Origin: Thermococcus nautili
GTDB taxonomy: Archaea > Methanobacteriota_B > Thermococci > Thermococcales > Thermococcaceae
Reading direction: 5' to 3'
Assembly (NCBI RefSeq): GCF_000585495.1
Contig: NZ_CP007264.1
Coordinates: forward strand, 124,001 to 188,000
DNA length: 64,000 nucleotides
Part shown: in pieces, positions 13,254 to 18,735 of the stretch
Layout of the letters: every line of letters starts with the position of its first letter
Numbering within the stretch: the stretch's first letter is position 1
Notes under the pieces: model-generated
Seen by the model: the letters and a program-made list of their open reading frames with translations, nothing else
Database searches by the model: none
What the model was told of the DNA's origin: nothing
Position numbers and translations under genes: made by a program

Positions 13254-13281
13254 TTTGAACCAAAACCCTTTAATTATAATT
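13254..13281 (+). promoter_or_regulatory. Promoter of ABC cassette copy A
   Basis: TTTGAACCAAAAC followed by TTTAATTATAATT forms a BRE/TATA-like element, leaving an untranslated leader of about 95 nt before ATG 13390. The same GAACCAAAA-TATA arrangement precedes cassette copy B at 15623-15646, so the promoter appears to have been duplicated with the genes. Confidence 0.4.
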
Positions 13282-13389: not shown

Positions 13390-14397
13390 ATGAAGAAATC
13401 AAGCGGAAGGCGTTTTCTCCTGTTTATATTTGTGTCCATTTTAGCCTTGATTTTTGTACCGAGCACTGCTTCCCTTTCCGAAACATCGGCCCCTTACTGG
13501 TTTCATCAGGGCTCGTTCGTTGAGTATAAAGCCGTTAGCTATCATCGCAACGGTGGAGGATTTGTTTTCAATGCAAGCGGAGTCCCTGTGTCCGTAACCG
13601 GTCCAAATATAACCGTGATTTTCAAGGTACTTAACGTAACCGGAGATATTGCGAGGGTGAAGGTTATTCTATCCGTGAGTACAGGCAATGTAACATTTGC
13701 GCCCGTTACGGTGTTTTATCCGGCCAATGGGACTTTCAAACCCTTCTGGAATGCGAGCGATGTCATCAATGTGACGAGAATGTCCAACAATTTAACAAGA
13801 GTCGTACTCAAGTCCCTTACCGTGGGTGGGGAATACGAGATAAAACTCAGCGCTGGATGGGTGTATGACCTCCACGGAAACCCTTACGGCCATACGGTTC
13901 TATGGGATGGATTCACTAAAAACGAAACGTTTGCGTTATACTATGGTAAGAGAGTGGTTATAACCGAGGTTAAAATAATTAATGCGACCCTAAATACTTA
14001 CTATTCGAGCTTTCCAAAGCCCAACCTCTTGGTTCACAGCACTCGTGTTGTGGCACCCGATGGACAGATTTCGTTTTTTGATGCCTTTTATAGCCCTGGC
14101 TACAGAATATGTCTGTCTTTCATAATGGACCCGATACCAGATTTTCATGCCGTCGGTATCTACGGCTTTATGTGGACGGACGATAGAGCGCTGGCTATAG
14201 ATAAGAAACTGAACTTGAACTATAAAATAGTCAACGGAGTCTGGCCACAGGGGGTTATACTGGCCAATGTCACTCTGGGGGAATCCACGACTCCAGTGGT
14301 GTCACCTCCCGAACCATCAAAAGCCAGGTATCTCCTGCCCATCGCTGTCGGAATAGCGGTGGTTGCTGGGGTTGTAACATACCGTAGGGGGCGGTAA
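13390..14397 (+). CDS. Secreted, C-terminally anchored sequon-rich protein, cassette copy A
   Basis: A 335-residue protein I do not recognise. It has a signal peptide (MKKSSGRRFLLFIFVSILAL to about residue 28), a beta-rich ectodomain with about eleven N-x-S/T sequons, and one C-terminal helix (YLLPIAVGIAVVAGVVTY) ending YRRGR. It is therefore an extracellular glycoprotein anchored at the C-terminus. The protein at 15824 is a diverged paralogue sharing PYW near the mature N-terminus, GxVY-GxxYGHTxL-D and the GxIxxxNVT segment. RBS GGAGGTG lies upstream. Codon use is more AT-rich than in flanking genes. It may bind the substrate of the linked ABC transporter. Confidence 0.7.
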   Translation: MKKSSGRRFLLFIFVSILALIFVPSTASLSETSAPYWFHQGSFVEYKAVSYHRNGGGFVFNASGVPVSVTGPNITVIFKVLNVTGDIARVKVILSVSTGNVTFAPVTVFYPANGTFKPFWNASDVINVTRMSNNLTRVVLKSLTVGGEYEIKLSAGWVYDLHGNPYGHTVLWDGFTKNETFALYYGKRVVITEVKIINATLNTYYSSFPKPNLLVHSTRVVAPDGQISFFDAFYSPGYRICLSFIMDPIPDFHAVGIYGFMWTDDRALAIDKKLNLNYKIVNGVWPQGVILANVTLGESTTPVVSPPEPSKARYLLPIAVGIAVVAGVVTYRRGR

Positions 14398-14398
14398 A

Positions 14399-15169
14399 AT
14401 GGGTAGAAGGATAACCCTACTTTCTTGGGAGTTGAACGACCCTATACGGGTTCTGATAACCACTTTGGGGATTCTCGTGACTGGCTATATCTTCCAGCAT
14501 AGCCTTCTTACCAGCACCGGGGAGATTGGAACTGTCTCGACTTCTGTAAATGGGCTTAACTCAATGAGCGGTTTTGTGATAGCCCGCGCCATAACCTCGG
14601 AAGATTTCTGGATTATCGCCACATTCTTCATCGCGATGCTGGTGACGTTGACGTTTCGTGCGGGTATAGAGGGTAGGTATGAATTAACAACATACTCGCT
14701 CCCGTATTCCAAGTCAGAGATTTTTGCCGTGAAACTGCTGGTCTCCTTTTTACTGTCCCTCCTGGTCGTGTTTGTCCCGTTCTTTGTTCTGGTCTCCATT
14801 AACTTTGCAGAAACACCCAAGTTCGTTCTCTCCCTCTTTACGGGGGAGCGCTTTATGGCCCTGTTGATTGTGGTTTTTATGGCAATTTTCTACATCCTTT
14901 CACTAACGCTGTTTTTGTCGGTGACTTTGAGAAACATGTTTGCGGTGCTCGTTTTTGCGTTCCCGCTCCTCGTTATCCCTTACTTCGTGACCGCGAATCT
15001 TCCACCGGGGAACCTCCTCCGGGAAACGGCCGTAAGCATATCGACTGGTGAATACTTCACACTCTCACAATTTCTCCTTCAACCGCGCTTTGTGGTAGGG
15101 GGCCTTGTCGTGCCCCTTATGCTTACGTTGGTGTCCTTCGTGATAATCCTATGGAGGGACGTTAGATGA
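14399..15169 (+). CDS. ABC-2-like permease, cassette copy A
   Basis: A 256-residue membrane protein with about six helices and a cytoplasmic N-terminus (LLSWELNDPIRVL) typical of ABC-2 exporter permeases. The central TTYSLPYSKSEIFAVKLL is the conserved coupling region seen in such permeases and is shared with the copy-B paralogue (YSLPFSKGEIFTAKFF). It follows the surface-protein gene by 1 bp and overlaps the next gene by 4 bp. The only ATPase in the island is at 18058. Transport direction and substrate are unknown. Confidence 0.7.
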   Translation: MGRRITLLSWELNDPIRVLITTLGILVTGYIFQHSLLTSTGEIGTVSTSVNGLNSMSGFVIARAITSEDFWIIATFFIAMLVTLTFRAGIEGRYELTTYSLPYSKSEIFAVKLLVSFLLSLLVVFVPFFVLVSINFAETPKFVLSLFTGERFMALLIVVFMAIFYILSLTLFLSVTLRNMFAVLVFAFPLLVIPYFVTANLPPGNLLRETAVSISTGEYFTLSQFLLQPRFVVGGLVVPLMLTLVSFVIILWRDVR

Positions 15170-15609
15170 GGCATCGCATGATAGTTTCTCTGGTGTTTGT
15201 CCTTGGGATTCTCTTCCTCCTCCCGGTAATTGAGTTTTCGCAGATTCACAAAACGGTATGGCCGGGGGGCGTTTACCCTGTTTCTGGTAGCGGGGGAGCG
15301 CAGTTTAACTCCCCCGGATGGGCAATGCTTAACCTGACCTGTAACGGTAAGAGTGGACGTGTGGTAGTGGAGGACGATGTAACCGGCCGTGTCCTGTTGA
15401 ACTCCACTGTCCTGGGTCACGCTCAGTTCGAGATAGTCCTTCCCCACGCCGGTGATTACAGTATCTACGGTTCAAACAACAATGAGTCTCTTGTCTGCAC
15501 TGACCAGGTCTGGAAGCCCTACGCAACCACGACTGTCCAAGACGTTTCATATCTGGGTTCCTCGGTGATGTTTTTACTTTTTGCAATATTGTTAGTAATG
15601 TCGCGTTAA
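15166..15609 (+). CDS. Small membrane-anchored ectodomain protein, cassette copy A
   Basis: A 147-residue protein with an N-terminal helix (IVSLVFVLGILFLLPVI), a short extracellular beta domain with sequons, and a C-terminal helix (YLGSSVMFLLFAILLVM). Not recognised as a known family. Its paralogue at 17618 shares the pattern SPGW-xMN-NGK, then IVLP-x-GxYxxY. It probably forms a complex with the permease encoded just upstream. Confidence 0.6.
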   Translation: MRHRMIVSLVFVLGILFLLPVIEFSQIHKTVWPGGVYPVSGSGGAQFNSPGWAMLNLTCNGKSGRVVVEDDVTGRVLLNSTVLGHAQFEIVLPHAGDYSIYGSNNNESLVCTDQVWKPYATTTVQDVSYLGSSVMFLLFAILLVMSR

Positions 15610-15622
15610 TATCGATAGATAG

Positions 15623-15646
15623 TTGAACCAAAATCGCTAAATATAA
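15623..15646 (+). promoter_or_regulatory. Promoter of ABC cassette copy B
   Basis: TTGAACCAAAAT then CTAAATATAATTA mirrors the promoter of copy A. It leaves a leader of about 160 nt before ATG 15824, unusually long for this genome, and the leader contains an inverted repeat. Confidence 0.4.
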
Positions 15647-15721
15647 TTACGACAACAGTGCATAATGCAACTTCAATATGGGTGGAGTCTCAGCCCATGC
15701 AGGAAAATGGACGTTGGTATG

Positions 15722-15742
15722 TTGGAATAGACCTTATTCCAA
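15722..15742. repeat. 8-bp inverted repeat in the leader of cassette copy B
   Basis: TTGGAATA, a 5-bp spacer, then TATTCCAA: perfect dyad symmetry, extendable with G-T and A-T pairs. It could be an operator for a dimeric regulator or an RNA hairpin. No equally good repeat is seen in the copy-A leader. Confidence 0.5.
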
Positions 15743-15823
15743 TATGTTGGGTACAGCAATGAAGTAACAGTTGCTTCCGTCGGTATTTCACCGGAGGGCG
15801 TATAACTACAGGAGGAATGCTTA

Positions 15824-16843
15824 ATGAAGAAGGGCGTATTCCCTCTCCTGATTTTGCTTTTCTTCCTTTTCCCGGCGTCCTTCGCAACTGCGACTCCATA
15901 CTGGGTTAAACCGGGTTCTCAACTGGTGTACTTTGCTAACGGAACAACATCCAATGCCTATGGTGGTGGGGCATATTATCAAAGGGATGGCTGTGTTGCT
16001 AACGTTGGTTTCCAGAGTGCGTATGTTGTTTTTAAAGTCGTTAACCTATCCAATAATTGGGTGACTGTTAATGTTACCGTCGTATTCTACGGGGACAAGT
16101 CCCTTAAATGGCCGTTCTCGGAGGTTTATGCGTATTACCCCGCAACATGTGCCCCTCCATTTCCTAATCCTCTTAATACTACCCCCTATTCCCGCAATAA
16201 TGTTTCGCTTAAATGGTCTGACTACGGGACTAAGCTGGTTCTCCACGGGACTTACAGGGTATACCTTCCCACTGGCATAGTGTATTCAACTGATGGCCGT
16301 GCCTATGGGCACACGATACTATTTGACTTGTATCCCGTTTCTAATAACAGCTACGTGTTTCTCGATAGAAAGCGTCTCTCCTTTAGCGAAGTCCGTATTC
16401 TGAACTCGACGACGTATGTGACGTATTACCGTAACTTTACTGGGCCAAACGTCCTCCTCATGAGTGAACCAACTAACTTTACCGACCCAAGTGGGGCAAT
16501 TGCATTTCTGAGAACACTTGCCGTATTTAATCCCGGCAACGACATAACACTGGGCTTCATGGGTGTCGTTCCAGACCTTGAGGCGTCTCTCGGAATCAGT
16601 GTTGTTACAGTGCTGGATAACATGGCCAAGCGTCAAAAACCCAAGTTCTCCGGAGAGGAACTACAGAGGGCCGTTGCTCCCGGACTCATCCTGTATAATG
16701 TTAGCATTCCCAAAAGTCCGAATTCAGAAACTCCGCCTTCCGTTCAACTCGCAGTGGCTCCCGCTCTTTCCAAGGTATGGGCTGTTAGTGCGGTTGTTGC
16801 TATCGTATTCCTCATCGGTGTTTTCGCATTAAAGAGGGGGTGA
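15824..16843 (+). CDS. Secreted, C-terminally anchored sequon-rich protein, cassette copy B
   Basis: A 339-residue paralogue of the protein at 13390: signal peptide (LLILLFFLFPASFATA), mature N-terminus TPYWVKPGSQLVY, many N-x-S/T sequons, the shared GIVYSTDGRAYGHTILFD and LSFSEVRILNST motifs, and a C-terminal helix (VWAVSAVVAIVFLIGVFAL) followed by KRG. Unlike copy A it has two ectodomain Cys residues (in DGCVAN and ATCAPP) that could form a disulfide. RBS AGGAGG lies upstream. Function unknown. Confidence 0.7.
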   Translation: MKKGVFPLLILLFFLFPASFATATPYWVKPGSQLVYFANGTTSNAYGGGAYYQRDGCVANVGFQSAYVVFKVVNLSNNWVTVNVTVVFYGDKSLKWPFSEVYAYYPATCAPPFPNPLNTTPYSRNNVSLKWSDYGTKLVLHGTYRVYLPTGIVYSTDGRAYGHTILFDLYPVSNNSYVFLDRKRLSFSEVRILNSTTYVTYYRNFTGPNVLLMSEPTNFTDPSGAIAFLRTLAVFNPGNDITLGFMGVVPDLEASLGISVVTVLDNMAKRQKPKFSGEELQRAVAPGLILYNVSIPKSPNSETPPSVQLAVAPALSKVWAVSAVVAIVFLIGVFALKRG

Positions 16844-16847
16844 GCCT

Positions 16848-17621
16848 ATGAATAAGTTTCGGACATTACTCGCCTGGGAACTTAGCGACTCTTTGAGATT
16901 GATAATTTTCCTTCTTGGAATTCCCTCTCTAACTTATCTTCTGGCCGTTGGTTACCTTAAATCCCAATGGGAACTTGGTTCCGTTGTTTCTTCACGTCCC
17001 CCCGTTTACAAGGGATTATCTCCCCTGGGAAGCATCACTGCTGTTCACCTCTTTGATTATCTTTCCCTCTCATCAGGTTTCTGGGTTCTCCTGGCACTTC
17101 TTGTCTCCATCTTGTCAGTCTTAACCTTCCGCTACGATAGGGAGCATGGTTATGCGTTTTCGGTTTATTCCCTTCCTTTCAGCAAGGGAGAAATATTCAC
17201 CGCAAAGTTTTTCTCTGCACTTCTTCTCTCCCTTGTTTCCCTGTACATCCCCATTTTAATTGTAGACGTGTTCCCAAATGCGGATATACTTGGGGTTATA
17301 CGAAAAATACTTTTCACAACTCAGTATTGCCATCTGCTTGTTTTTGCCACGTATTTTGTACTCTTCTCTCTGTCAGTCTCTTTGCTGTTTTCAGTTCTGT
17401 TAAGGGACATGCTCCTGGCTTTTATTGCATCCTTTTTCCTTCTTGTTCTTCCCTTTTTTGCGGGTCTTAACTGGCCACCATTTTCATTTGTTTCAATGCT
17501 TCCAAGGTCTCTGTCCGGTGCGTCACCGTTTGATTTCACCTGGTTTCTTAGGGGTCTCATAGTACCAATAGCACTCGTGCTTGTATCTGGACTGATTTTC
17601 ACAAGGAGGGATGTCCTGTGA
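16848..17621 (+). CDS. ABC-2-like permease, cassette copy B
   Basis: A 257-residue paralogue of the permease at 14399, with about six helices, an N-terminal LLAWELSDSLRLI and the coupling segment YSLPFSKGEIFTAKFFSALL. It sits between the surface protein and the small anchored protein exactly as in copy A. RBS GGGTGAGCCT. It presumably pairs with the ATPase at 18058, possibly as a heterodimer with copy A. Confidence 0.7.
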   Translation: MNKFRTLLAWELSDSLRLIIFLLGIPSLTYLLAVGYLKSQWELGSVVSSRPPVYKGLSPLGSITAVHLFDYLSLSSGFWVLLALLVSILSVLTFRYDREHGYAFSVYSLPFSKGEIFTAKFFSALLLSLVSLYIPILIVDVFPNADILGVIRKILFTTQYCHLLVFATYFVLFSLSVSLLFSVLLRDMLLAFIASFFLLVLPFFAGLNWPPFSFVSMLPRSLSGASPFDFTWFLRGLIVPIALVLVSGLIFTRRDVL

Positions 17622-18061
17622 AAGGAAAGTTCCTATTCGTACTTTTGTTATCCATCATGTTGGCTCTTCTGGGTGTTTGGGGAGCGTACATTACAGTGAA
17701 ACGAAATCCCGGTTTCATTGGACCGGTGGTTATGTCGAACTCACGAGGGGCACTTAGTTACGTATCAATTCATTCCCCTGGGTGGATAGTTATGAACTCC
17801 AGCTTTAATGGGAAAGGGAGGCTTATTATTTTGGACCAGTTTTCTAACAGGACCATTTTCACATACAACGTCAGCGAGCACCTTGCCTATCCAATAGTCC
17901 TTCCAAGAGAGGGTAGTTATGCAGTCTACGTCTTGAACGGCTCCCTGACGTTTTCGGCTTATTACCCTGGAGTTTATCCCACTCTTAAAGTCCAGAAAGC
18001 CCTGTACATGTCAATAACAATTCTGGCTTTTGTATTGGCTCTGTGGAGGTGGAGGGCATGA
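17618..18061 (+). CDS. Small membrane-anchored ectodomain protein, cassette copy B
   Basis: A 147-residue paralogue of the protein at 15166, of identical length: N-terminal helix (LFVLLLSIMLALLGVW), sequon-bearing beta domain (HSPGWIVMNSSFNGKGRL, PIVLPREGSYAVYVLNGS), and a C-terminal helix ending WRWRA. The GTG start overlaps the permease stop by 4 bp, and its stop overlaps the ATPase start. No known family. Confidence 0.6.
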   Translation: MKGKFLFVLLLSIMLALLGVWGAYITVKRNPGFIGPVVMSNSRGALSYVSIHSPGWIVMNSSFNGKGRLIILDQFSNRTIFTYNVSEHLAYPIVLPREGSYAVYVLNGSLTFSAYYPGVYPTLKVQKALYMSITILAFVLALWRWRA

Positions 18062-18735
18062 TTGAAGCAAAGAATCTGACCAAGCGTTTTGGGCGCATAG
18101 TGGCGCTCGATGGTGTTACAGTTGAGATTCCCGAGGGCTTCAACCTAATCCTCGGCCCAAACGGGGGAGGGAAGAGCACCTTCTTCAAGCTGGCAACTGG
18201 TGTCTACCGGCCAACTTCCGGGAGGATAGCCCTCTTTGGGAAGAACCCCTGGACGGATGCGGGGGTTAAACGGAAGATTGGAGTCTCCTACGACCCCGTT
18301 TCGTTCCCCCCACTAATCTCGGGTTGGGAGTGGCTTGAGTTCATAGCGCGTTCCAAAGGCTTCGATGAGAGTGAGGTCGAGCGCGTTGGGAAGCTCTTTC
18401 AGCTCGACTTTCTTGACGAGAGAACGTCCAACTATTCCTCTGGAATGCTCAAGAAGCTCGCGGTGGCCCAGGCCTTCGTAGGCGCTCCCAAGTTGATTAT
18501 GATAGACGAGCCCCTGGCTAACATCGACTTTGAAACAATGGGACGGTTCGTAAAGCTTTTCAGGAAGATGAAAGGTGAAACAAGCTTTCTTGTCATAAGC
18601 CACATATGGGAGCCATTAAAGCCCGTCGTGGACAGGCTGTACGTCATCTCCAACGGAAGGCTTATTCTCCAGGGTGAAGCCAGGGAACTCTGGGACGAAG
18701 TGGAGAGGCTGTTCCGCTTTCCCGTTTCCGAATAG
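18058..18735 (+). CDS. ABC transporter ATPase serving the duplicated cassette
   Basis: A 225-residue ABC ATPase with Walker A GPNGGGKST at residues 33-41, Walker B LIMIDEPLANID and H-loop VISHIWEP. The signature is YSSGMLKKLAVAQAF, an altered LSGGQ, as often seen in exporter-type ATPases. ATG 18058 overlaps the stop of the small anchored protein. It is the only ATPase for two permeases. Its GC-richer, host-like codon use contrasts with the six genes before it, suggesting a different history. Confidence 0.85.
   Translation: MIEAKNLTKRFGRIVALDGVTVEIPEGFNLILGPNGGGKSTFFKLATGVYRPTSGRIALFGKNPWTDAGVKRKIGVSYDPVSFPPLISGWEWLEFIARSKGFDESEVERVGKLFQLDFLDERTSNYSSGMLKKLAVAQAFVGAPKLIMIDEPLANIDFETMGRFVKLFRKMKGETSFLVISHIWEPLKPVVDRLYVISNGRLILQGEARELWDEVERLFRFPVSE

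What the first reader, a model, noticed from the sequence alone, without database searches (positions are those of the whole stretch)
13390..18735. Duplicated surface-protein/ABC permease cassette sharing one ATPase
Two diverged copies of the same three-gene module (signal-peptide sequon-rich C-terminally anchored protein; six-helix ABC-2-like permease; 147-residue two-helix ectodomain protein) run in tandem before a single ATPase with an altered signature (SSGM). I recognise no described family for the two non-permease proteins. The island is more AT-rich than its surroundings except for the ATPase. Possible roles are export of a peptide, lipid or glycan, or self-protection at the cell surface. 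This is the best candidate for an undescribed system here.
Basis: partly seen in the sequence, partly recalled or inferred. Interest (0 to 1): 0.75.

Follow-up and report, generated by a model that had tools for sequence, protein, structure and literature searches.

The report
Stacked archaeal surface-protein ABC transporter cassettes
Two versions of a heat-loving archaeon's surface-protein and transporter gene set sit stacked on one shared motor; in related species the same set often follows a gene for a small, fast-changing secreted protein, so it may protect the cell against such proteins, which would be undescribed weapons of archaea.

Summary
The single cassette S-P-E-A (surface protein, ABC-2-like permease, two-helix ectodomain protein, ATPase) recurs in Thermococcales: P in 61 of 94 genomes of the order, S in 61 of 115 genomes of the phylum, all within this order. 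All 22 and all 34 strong genome-wide matches of the two largest families lie beside an S gene. In 16 loci with one such family, the small protein and S vary (51%, 34% identity) while P and A are conserved (73%, 81%). Small genes are broken about 7 times more often per kb than S. The window holds a relic of such a gene before S2, while its seven genes are under purifying selection. The two cassettes are different alleles stacked at an exchange site, not a simple duplication. Best reading (0.48): immunity or resistance against secreted protein toxins, working like LanI plus LanFEG but not a member. Toxicity is inferred, not shown.

The parts
13255..13265 (+). promoter-like element of cassette 1 (11-mer followed by a TATA-like stretch)
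   Evidence: identical 11-mer before S1 and S2 in the window and in L077; exact in 4 of 112 upstream regions scanned, all four in these two genomes; promoter role inferred
13390..14397 (+). S1, type I surface protein, signal-like segment and C-terminal anchor
   Evidence: dN/dS about 0.18 against the sister species
14399..15169 (+). P1, type I ABC-2-like permease
   Evidence: ABC2_membrane_5 below its cut-off
15166..15609 (+). E1, type I two-helix ectodomain protein
15623..15633 (+). promoter-like element of cassette 2
15660..15805 (+). relic of a c38-type small secreted-protein gene, frameshifted, no signal peptide left
   Evidence: orthologous stretch in L077 matches intact small proteins of L082 (E 1.5e-7) and L080 (7e-6), in a four-piece, about 1.5-kb database; c38 DNA profile 1.1e-6 in L077 and 0.023 in the window; 70% identity to L077 with 8 gap columns against 93-96% and no gap in the genes
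15824..16843 (+). S2, type II surface protein
   Evidence: 59-65% identical to S of L080, L081, L082; dN/dS about 0.10
16848..17621 (+). P2, type II ABC-2-like permease
   Evidence: 71-73% identical to P of L080-L082
17618..18061 (+). E2, type II two-helix ectodomain protein
   Evidence: 59-67% identical to E of L080-L082
18058..18735 (+). A, the single ABC ATPase
   Evidence: ABC_tran 64.2 bits, cut-off 25; 89-90% identical to A of L109, a type I operon

Best explanation
The island is an orphaned, double immunity or resistance locus of a Thermococcales-specific secreted-toxin system. In the complete form a small protein with a signal peptide (the presumed toxin) is followed by S, P, E and A. 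S is anchored outside the cell and binds its cognate small protein. P, E and A form an ABC complex that uses ATP to clear the bound protein from the membrane or to reset S. The small protein and S are the variable specificity pair; P, E and A are the shared machine. Operons grow by adding small-S pairs, extra S genes or whole S-P-E sets. Here a type I operon and a type II set, which came with its small gene, share one ATPase. The small gene of cassette 2 has decayed while S, P, E and A stay under purifying selection. SHOWN by sequence: gene order, association, variability, decay, selection, allele exchange. INFERRED: that the small protein is toxic, that S binds it, what the transporter moves, that A serves both permeases.
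For: Small proteins with signal-like N-termini precede S in many loci; 22 of 22 c2 and 34 of 34 c3 matches with E under 1e-20 in 94 genomes lie beside S. Small-S is a repeated unit before one P-E-A in L005 and L121. In 16 c2 loci the mature small protein (51%) and adjacent S (34%) vary, P (73%) and A (81%) do not; small and adjacent S co-diverge beyond the transporter (partial r 0.71; c3, 27 loci, 0.51). In 14 c2 loci the signal peptide is 84% and the mature part 53% identical. Small genes are broken in 13 of 78, S in 10 of 148; 11 of the 13 loci with a broken small gene keep S, P and A intact. Window relic beside seven genes with dN/dS 0.05-0.22. Several unrelated small families in one slot. 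Best-scoring ATPase models include daunorubicin resistance (107.6 bits) and gallidermin protection (105.7), both far below their cut-offs near 310.
Against: No toxicity, binding or transport was tested. No small family resembles a known toxin. S is even more variable than the small protein. Small-S co-divergence may come partly from linkage. Small genes were not detected in 26 of 100 S-bearing loci, and weak, decayed c3-like matches lie away from S in G007 and G011. Per gene, broken small against broken S is only p = 0.035. The PEGA proteins in many c3 loci have no place in the model. Other variable surface systems would show much of the same pattern.
Confidence: 0.48

Rival explanations
1. 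Maturation or assembly system: the small protein is a client (structural or functional surface protein) that S and the ABC complex P-E-A fold, load or release at the surface, as NosDFY does for nitrous oxide reductase (recalled).
For: Small protein, anchored ectodomain and ABC-2 permease in one operon with tight spacing; small protein has its own signal peptide, so the ABC complex need not export it.
Against: S-P-E-A is kept without the client: 11 of 13 loci with a broken small gene keep S, P and A, and the window genes stay under selection beside a dead small gene. Several unrelated clients in one slot.
Confidence: 0.2
2. Ligand-receptor recognition system: the small protein is a signal or kin marker, S its receptor, and P-E-A recycles or clears it; no killing.
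For: Variable pair on a conserved machine, co-divergence of small and adjacent S, allele exchange at a fixed site.
Against: Up to five S genes per small gene (L123) and retention of two receptor sets without a ligand in the window fit protection better than signalling. No intracellular signalling part is seen in the operon.
Confidence: 0.17
3. Dedicated exporter of another substrate (lipid, glycan or peptide), with the small protein an accessory; in the window two permeases form a heterodimer on one ATPase.
For: ABC-2-like permease and ATPase; the flanking upstream gene is phosphomannomutase-like (by sequence; name from my own knowledge).
Against: The flank differs between copies: other loci lie beside elongation factor 2-like or leucyl-tRNA synthetase-like genes (names from my own knowledge). 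Loci with one P are common, so a heterodimer is not needed. Strong small-protein matches are found only beside S.
Confidence: 0.12

Closest known systems
LanI plus LanFEG lantibiotic immunity (nisin: NisI and NisFEG)
   Same: A surface-anchored immunity protein plus an ABC transporter protect the producer (PMC4828448, search listing with start of abstract); ATPase scores a gallidermin-protection model second best
   Different: Here the small partner is a protein of over 100 residues with a signal peptide, no lanthipeptide gene was identified among the neighbours, S is unrelated in sequence to any Pfam family, and the ATPase is far below the subfamily cut-off
Lactococcin 972-type bacteriocin loci
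   Same: Sec-secreted small beta-rich protein encoded with an ABC transporter (recalled)
   Different: No small protein scanned matches a Pfam family at cut-off, lactococcin 972 included; S and E have no counterpart that I recall
NosDFY
   Same: ABC-2 permease, ATPase and an extracytoplasmic partner (recalled)
   Different: S is not matched by Pfam models at cut-off, so not by NosD-type ones; the small partner is variable and often lost
VARTIG and predicted archaeocin loci of archaea
   Same: Variable, horizontally exchanged secreted-protein loci in Thermococcales (PMC8416519, passages)
   Different: VARTIG centres on large Ig-domain proteins; 'ABC' and 'permease' do not occur in that main text. 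The survey by Makarova and others 2019 (mBio) is not held, so overlap with its candidate list is untested

Membership tests
ABC-2-type ABC transporters | ABC ATPase with Walker A and signature motif | tested here: met
   A: ABC_tran 64.2 bits, cut-off 25; GPNGGGKS and YSSGM
ABC-2-type ABC transporters | ABC-2 permease family match of P | tested here: inconclusive
   ABC2_membrane_5 13.9 (P1) and 18.2 bits (P2), cut-off 25; six to seven hydrophobic peaks
LanI/LanFEG lantibiotic immunity | ATPase of the lantibiotic-protection subfamily | tested here: not met
   TIGR03740 105.7 bits, cut-off 309.75
LanI/LanFEG lantibiotic immunity | lanthipeptide and modification genes in the locus | tested here: inconclusive
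   recurrent neighbours were read as clusters without any that I recognise as such; no systematic search for modification enzymes was made
LanI/LanFEG lantibiotic immunity | protection against the small partner | not testable with these tools
   needs experiment
Lactococcin 972 family | Pfam match of the small protein | tested here: not met
   no family at cut-off for the representatives of c2, c3, c12, c22, c38, c47 and c211 scanned
Bacteriocin or archaeocin | growth inhibition of relatives by the small protein | not testable with these tools
   needs experiment
NosDFY | NosD-like partner protein | tested here: not met
   60 S proteins scanned, no Pfam family matched more than one member and the best E was 0.0063
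Known anti-phage defence systems | PADLOC model match for a component other than the ATPase | tested here: not met
   none for S, P, E or three small proteins; generic ATPase matches for A

The most novel reading that the evidence does not exclude
Thermococcales carry a whole undescribed class of secreted, heat-stable protein toxins in swappable families, each paired with a variable surface receptor (S) and served by one conserved ABC machine (P-E-A). The window is an immunity-only locus in which two immunity alleles from different operons were stacked on one ATPase.
Probability: 0.42. Interest if true: 0.82.

Novelty: new variant of a known kind. Interest (0 to 1): 0.62.

Why it matters
Few antagonism systems are known from hyperthermophilic archaea; sulfolobicins of Sulfolobus are the example I met (PMC3718332, passages). 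The rows listed by six literature searches (one search listed 12 of 539 papers) showed none on such loci in Thermococcales. If the reading is right, several families of 'hypothetical' proteins (S, E and at least five small families) gain a testable role, a variable toxin-receptor pair on a conserved motor could be studied in a genetically tractable laboratory archaeon, and stacked operons would show how cells accumulate immunities.

Tried and rejected
In-situ tandem duplication as the origin of the two cassettes: set aside. Window cassette 1 is nearest to the first set of L096, the second of L105 and the single set of L109; window cassette 2 to L080, L081, L082 and the second set of L096 (the sister L077 has both).

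Unusual ATPase signature: rejected. P-E and E-A gene fusions: apparent ORFs of 400, 333 and 374 residues in L110, L112, L094, L098 and L096 are out-of-frame N-terminal extensions. The same error made the E profile too long, so E is left out of the broken-gene counts, where it is flagged 'broken' in 60 of 100.

A shared regulator for all cassettes: the 11-mer is exact only in the window and L077, and within two mismatches in 9 further of 112 upstream regions; read as a promoter element of this site. A relic before S1: only a 30-bp match in the promoter region was found; none is claimed.

Folds: S (6 sequences, pLDDT 51.8) and a c2 small protein (2 sequences, pLDDT 58.0) gave weak models. For S, Foldseek gave no PDB match at E <= 0.001 and the second look no Z of 5 or more; the small model was not searched. 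PDB sequence profiles: S one match at 0.059, c2 none, c3 best 0.013, an antibody domain. P had no relative in viral contigs or plasmids. PHROGs: none for nine proteins. Genome contigs gave four loci, all Thermococcus MAGs.

Rows dropped: one search left out L049 and L057, which lie inside larger loci. For the tests I pruned by hand four P and one A flagged as broken that belong to unrelated transporters or stray matches, set genes at contig edges aside (2 S, 2 A), and typed approximate denominators for P (95) and A (97) and mean gene lengths. Two of the 13 'broken' small genes are borderline (coverage 0.73 in L062, 0.78 in L128). Results against the reading: decayed c3-like matches lie away from S in G007 and G011; six weak c2 matches (E 5e-4 to 0.008) were not checked for a neighbouring S; S is more variable than the small protein; the gene-wise Fisher test is p = 0.035 where the per-kb test is 7.6e-6; the relic in the window alone scores only E = 0.023.
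Full report
OBSERVATION. The seven genes are as described: S1-P1-E1, a gap of about 215 bp, S2-P2-E2 and one ATPase A. The copies are about 31-32% identical and clearly homologous. S has a signal-like segment, a C-terminal hydrophobic segment and about four times the sequons of shuffles; E has two hydrophobic segments; P has six to seven hydrophobic peaks. S and E match no Pfam or NCBIfam family at cut-off. P is a weak, below-cut-off ABC2_membrane_5 match and A a clear ABC ATPase. The profile of E weakly matches a C-terminal domain of the collagenase ColH (best E = 4.7e-4); I read this as a hint of a beta-sandwich and no more.

THE UNIT IS S-P-E-A. The same genome has two further loci with their own ATPase, L005 and L006. 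A permease profile finds relatives in 61 of 94 genomes of the order, and an S profile in 61 of 115 genomes of the phylum, all in the six genera of the order. I mapped 103 loci: 3 from the own genome, 80 chosen from the permease matches, and 20 added because of S or small-protein matches; they are not a random sample. S-P-E-A order is nearly constant and tight. By longest ORF, and with a few loci counted twice, adjacent S-P pairs are at most 20 bp apart or overlap in 78 of 84, P-E in 96 of 97, E-A in 88 of 91.

A SMALL SECRETED PROTEIN OFTEN OPENS THE OPERON. Upstream of S many loci hold a protein of roughly 105-150 residues with a signal-like N-terminus. A tblastn search with 14 representatives finds a whole or partial one in 57 of the first 83 loci. 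By profile models 74 of the 100 S-bearing loci among 101 have one: intact in 61, broken in 13, none detected in 26, the window and its sister being among the 26 (counted). Families c2, c3, c12, c22 and c38 are not related by profile comparison; c47 joins c38 (probability 72%) and c211 perhaps c22 (31%), on very few sequences. Representatives match no family at cut-off in Pfam or NCBIfam, and three of them (c2, c3, c38) none in PHROGs or PADLOC. Searched in 94 genomes, all 22 c2 and all 34 c3 matches with E under 1e-20 lie directly beside an S gene (and maps, compared by hand). The models were built from genes found beside S, but nothing kept the search from finding strong matches elsewhere. 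Two genomes, G007 and G011, have a decayed c3-like match away from their S genes.

WHAT REPEATS AND WHAT VARIES. L121 has small-S, small-S-S, small-S, PEGA protein, P-E-A; L005 has small-S, small-S, P-E-A; L094 has four S and L123 five S before one P-E-A. So the small gene and S form a unit that multiplies, and P-E-A is shared. In 16 c2 loci mean pairwise identity is 51% for the mature small protein, 34% for the S next to it, 40% for the last S, 73% for P and 81% for A. In 14 c2 loci the 22-residue signal peptide is 84% identical and the mature part 53%. Distances of the small protein follow those of the adjacent S after removing transporter distances (c2, 16 loci, P and A removed: partial r 0.71; c3, 27 loci, P, E and A removed: 0.51; permutation p 0.0005 each), and those of the last S less (0.22, p 0.03; 0.21, p 0.015). 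In loci with one S the two are the same gene, and close linkage alone could add to this signal.

THE SMALL GENE TENDS TO DIE FIRST. Of 78 detected small genes 13 are broken (two of them borderline); of 148 S genes away from contig ends 10; P 7 and A 3 after hand-pruning of unrelated transporters. Per gene the small-S difference is modest (Fisher p = 0.035); per kilobase it is seven-fold (p = 7.6e-6; against S, P and A together 2e-6, with approximate denominators). Eleven of the 13 loci with a broken small gene have intact S, P and A; the other two (L104, L111) are decaying as a whole. Some of these genomes are drafts, so a part of the breaks may be sequence errors.

THE WINDOW'S OWN RELIC. The gap before S2 is such a case. 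In the sister species (L077; island 93.5% identical) the same gap matches the intact small protein of L082 (E = 1.5e-7) and of L080 (7e-6) up to the stop codon, in a search of four intergenic pieces, and the c38 DNA profile (E = 1.1e-6; the window copy alone only 0.023). Between the two species the seven genes are 93-96% identical without a gap, with dN/dS of about 0.05 to 0.22, whereas the relic stretch is 70% identical with 8 gap columns. Both cassettes are thus maintained and the small gene is not. No relic is recognisable before S1. Each cassette has its own promoter-like element with an identical 11-mer, which agrees with cassette 2 having arrived with its small gene and promoter.

STACKED ALLELES, NOT A SIMPLE DUPLICATION. 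The same chromosomal site, after a phosphomannomutase-like gene (PMM), is occupied in ten mapped loci by different combinations (the ten include the decayed L104, which is not in the comparison). Type I sets: window 1, L077 first, L096 first, L105 second, L109 alone. Type II sets: window 2, L077 second, L096 second, and L080, L081, L082 alone. A third type: L105 first and L106 alone. Window A is 89-90% identical to A of L109 (a type I operon), 96% to the sister L077, and 70-78% to the other intact A genes. A of L105 is 93% identical to that of L106, whose set stands first in L105. So foreign S-P-E sets seem to have been inserted between E and A at least twice, in opposite order (inference). 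Flanking genes and cassettes disagree: window against L109, PMM 97%, A about 90%, but S 53%, P 46%, E 59%; L105 against L106, PMM 88%, S 88%, P, E and A 93%. This points to exchange of alleles at a fixed site.

MECHANISM. Most likely S catches a secreted toxin at the surface and P-E-A removes it with ATP: functionally like LanI with LanFEG. Shown: the facts above on order, linkage, divergence, decay and selection. Inferred: toxicity, binding, transport, sharing of A. Rivals are client maturation (NosDFY-like), a ligand-receptor recognition system, and an ordinary exporter with two permeases on one ATPase. Retention of S-P-E-A without the small gene argues most directly against the first, and the exclusive small-S link against the last.

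MEMBERSHIP AND NOVELTY. It fails the lantibiotic-immunity test for the ATPase subfamily, has no lactococcin 972 match by Pfam, and no PADLOC match outside the ATPase. The rows listed by the literature searches showed no paper on such loci in Thermococcales. The most relevant survey of archaeal toxins (Makarova and others 2019, mBio) is not held and may list some of these genes as candidates. I rate it a new variant of a known kind: toxin-immunity-like, with new protein families and a new architecture.

Noticed in passing
L041-L061 and L121-L129, for example L123:2642-13635: Many loci with a c3 small gene also carry a secreted protein of about 530-580 residues with PEGA domains, inside or just after the operon; in L123 S and PEGA genes alternate. 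Its role is unexplained.
   Followed up: partly
G007:C1:985317-985663 and G011:C4:102458-102804: Decayed c3-like small-protein gene with two stop codons in one piece, away from the S genes found in these genomes.
   Followed up: no
L110:12467-16000: A 1178-residue ORF near an S-P-E-A locus joins PEGA domains to a protein kinase domain.
   Followed up: no
L006:3424-4440: A membrane protein with a DUF835 domain precedes the S-P-E-A locus of the own genome that lacks a small gene; L084 has a related gene.
   Followed up: no
L131:5176-6258: A lone S gene without detected P, E, A or small gene in the fetched stretch.
   Followed up: no
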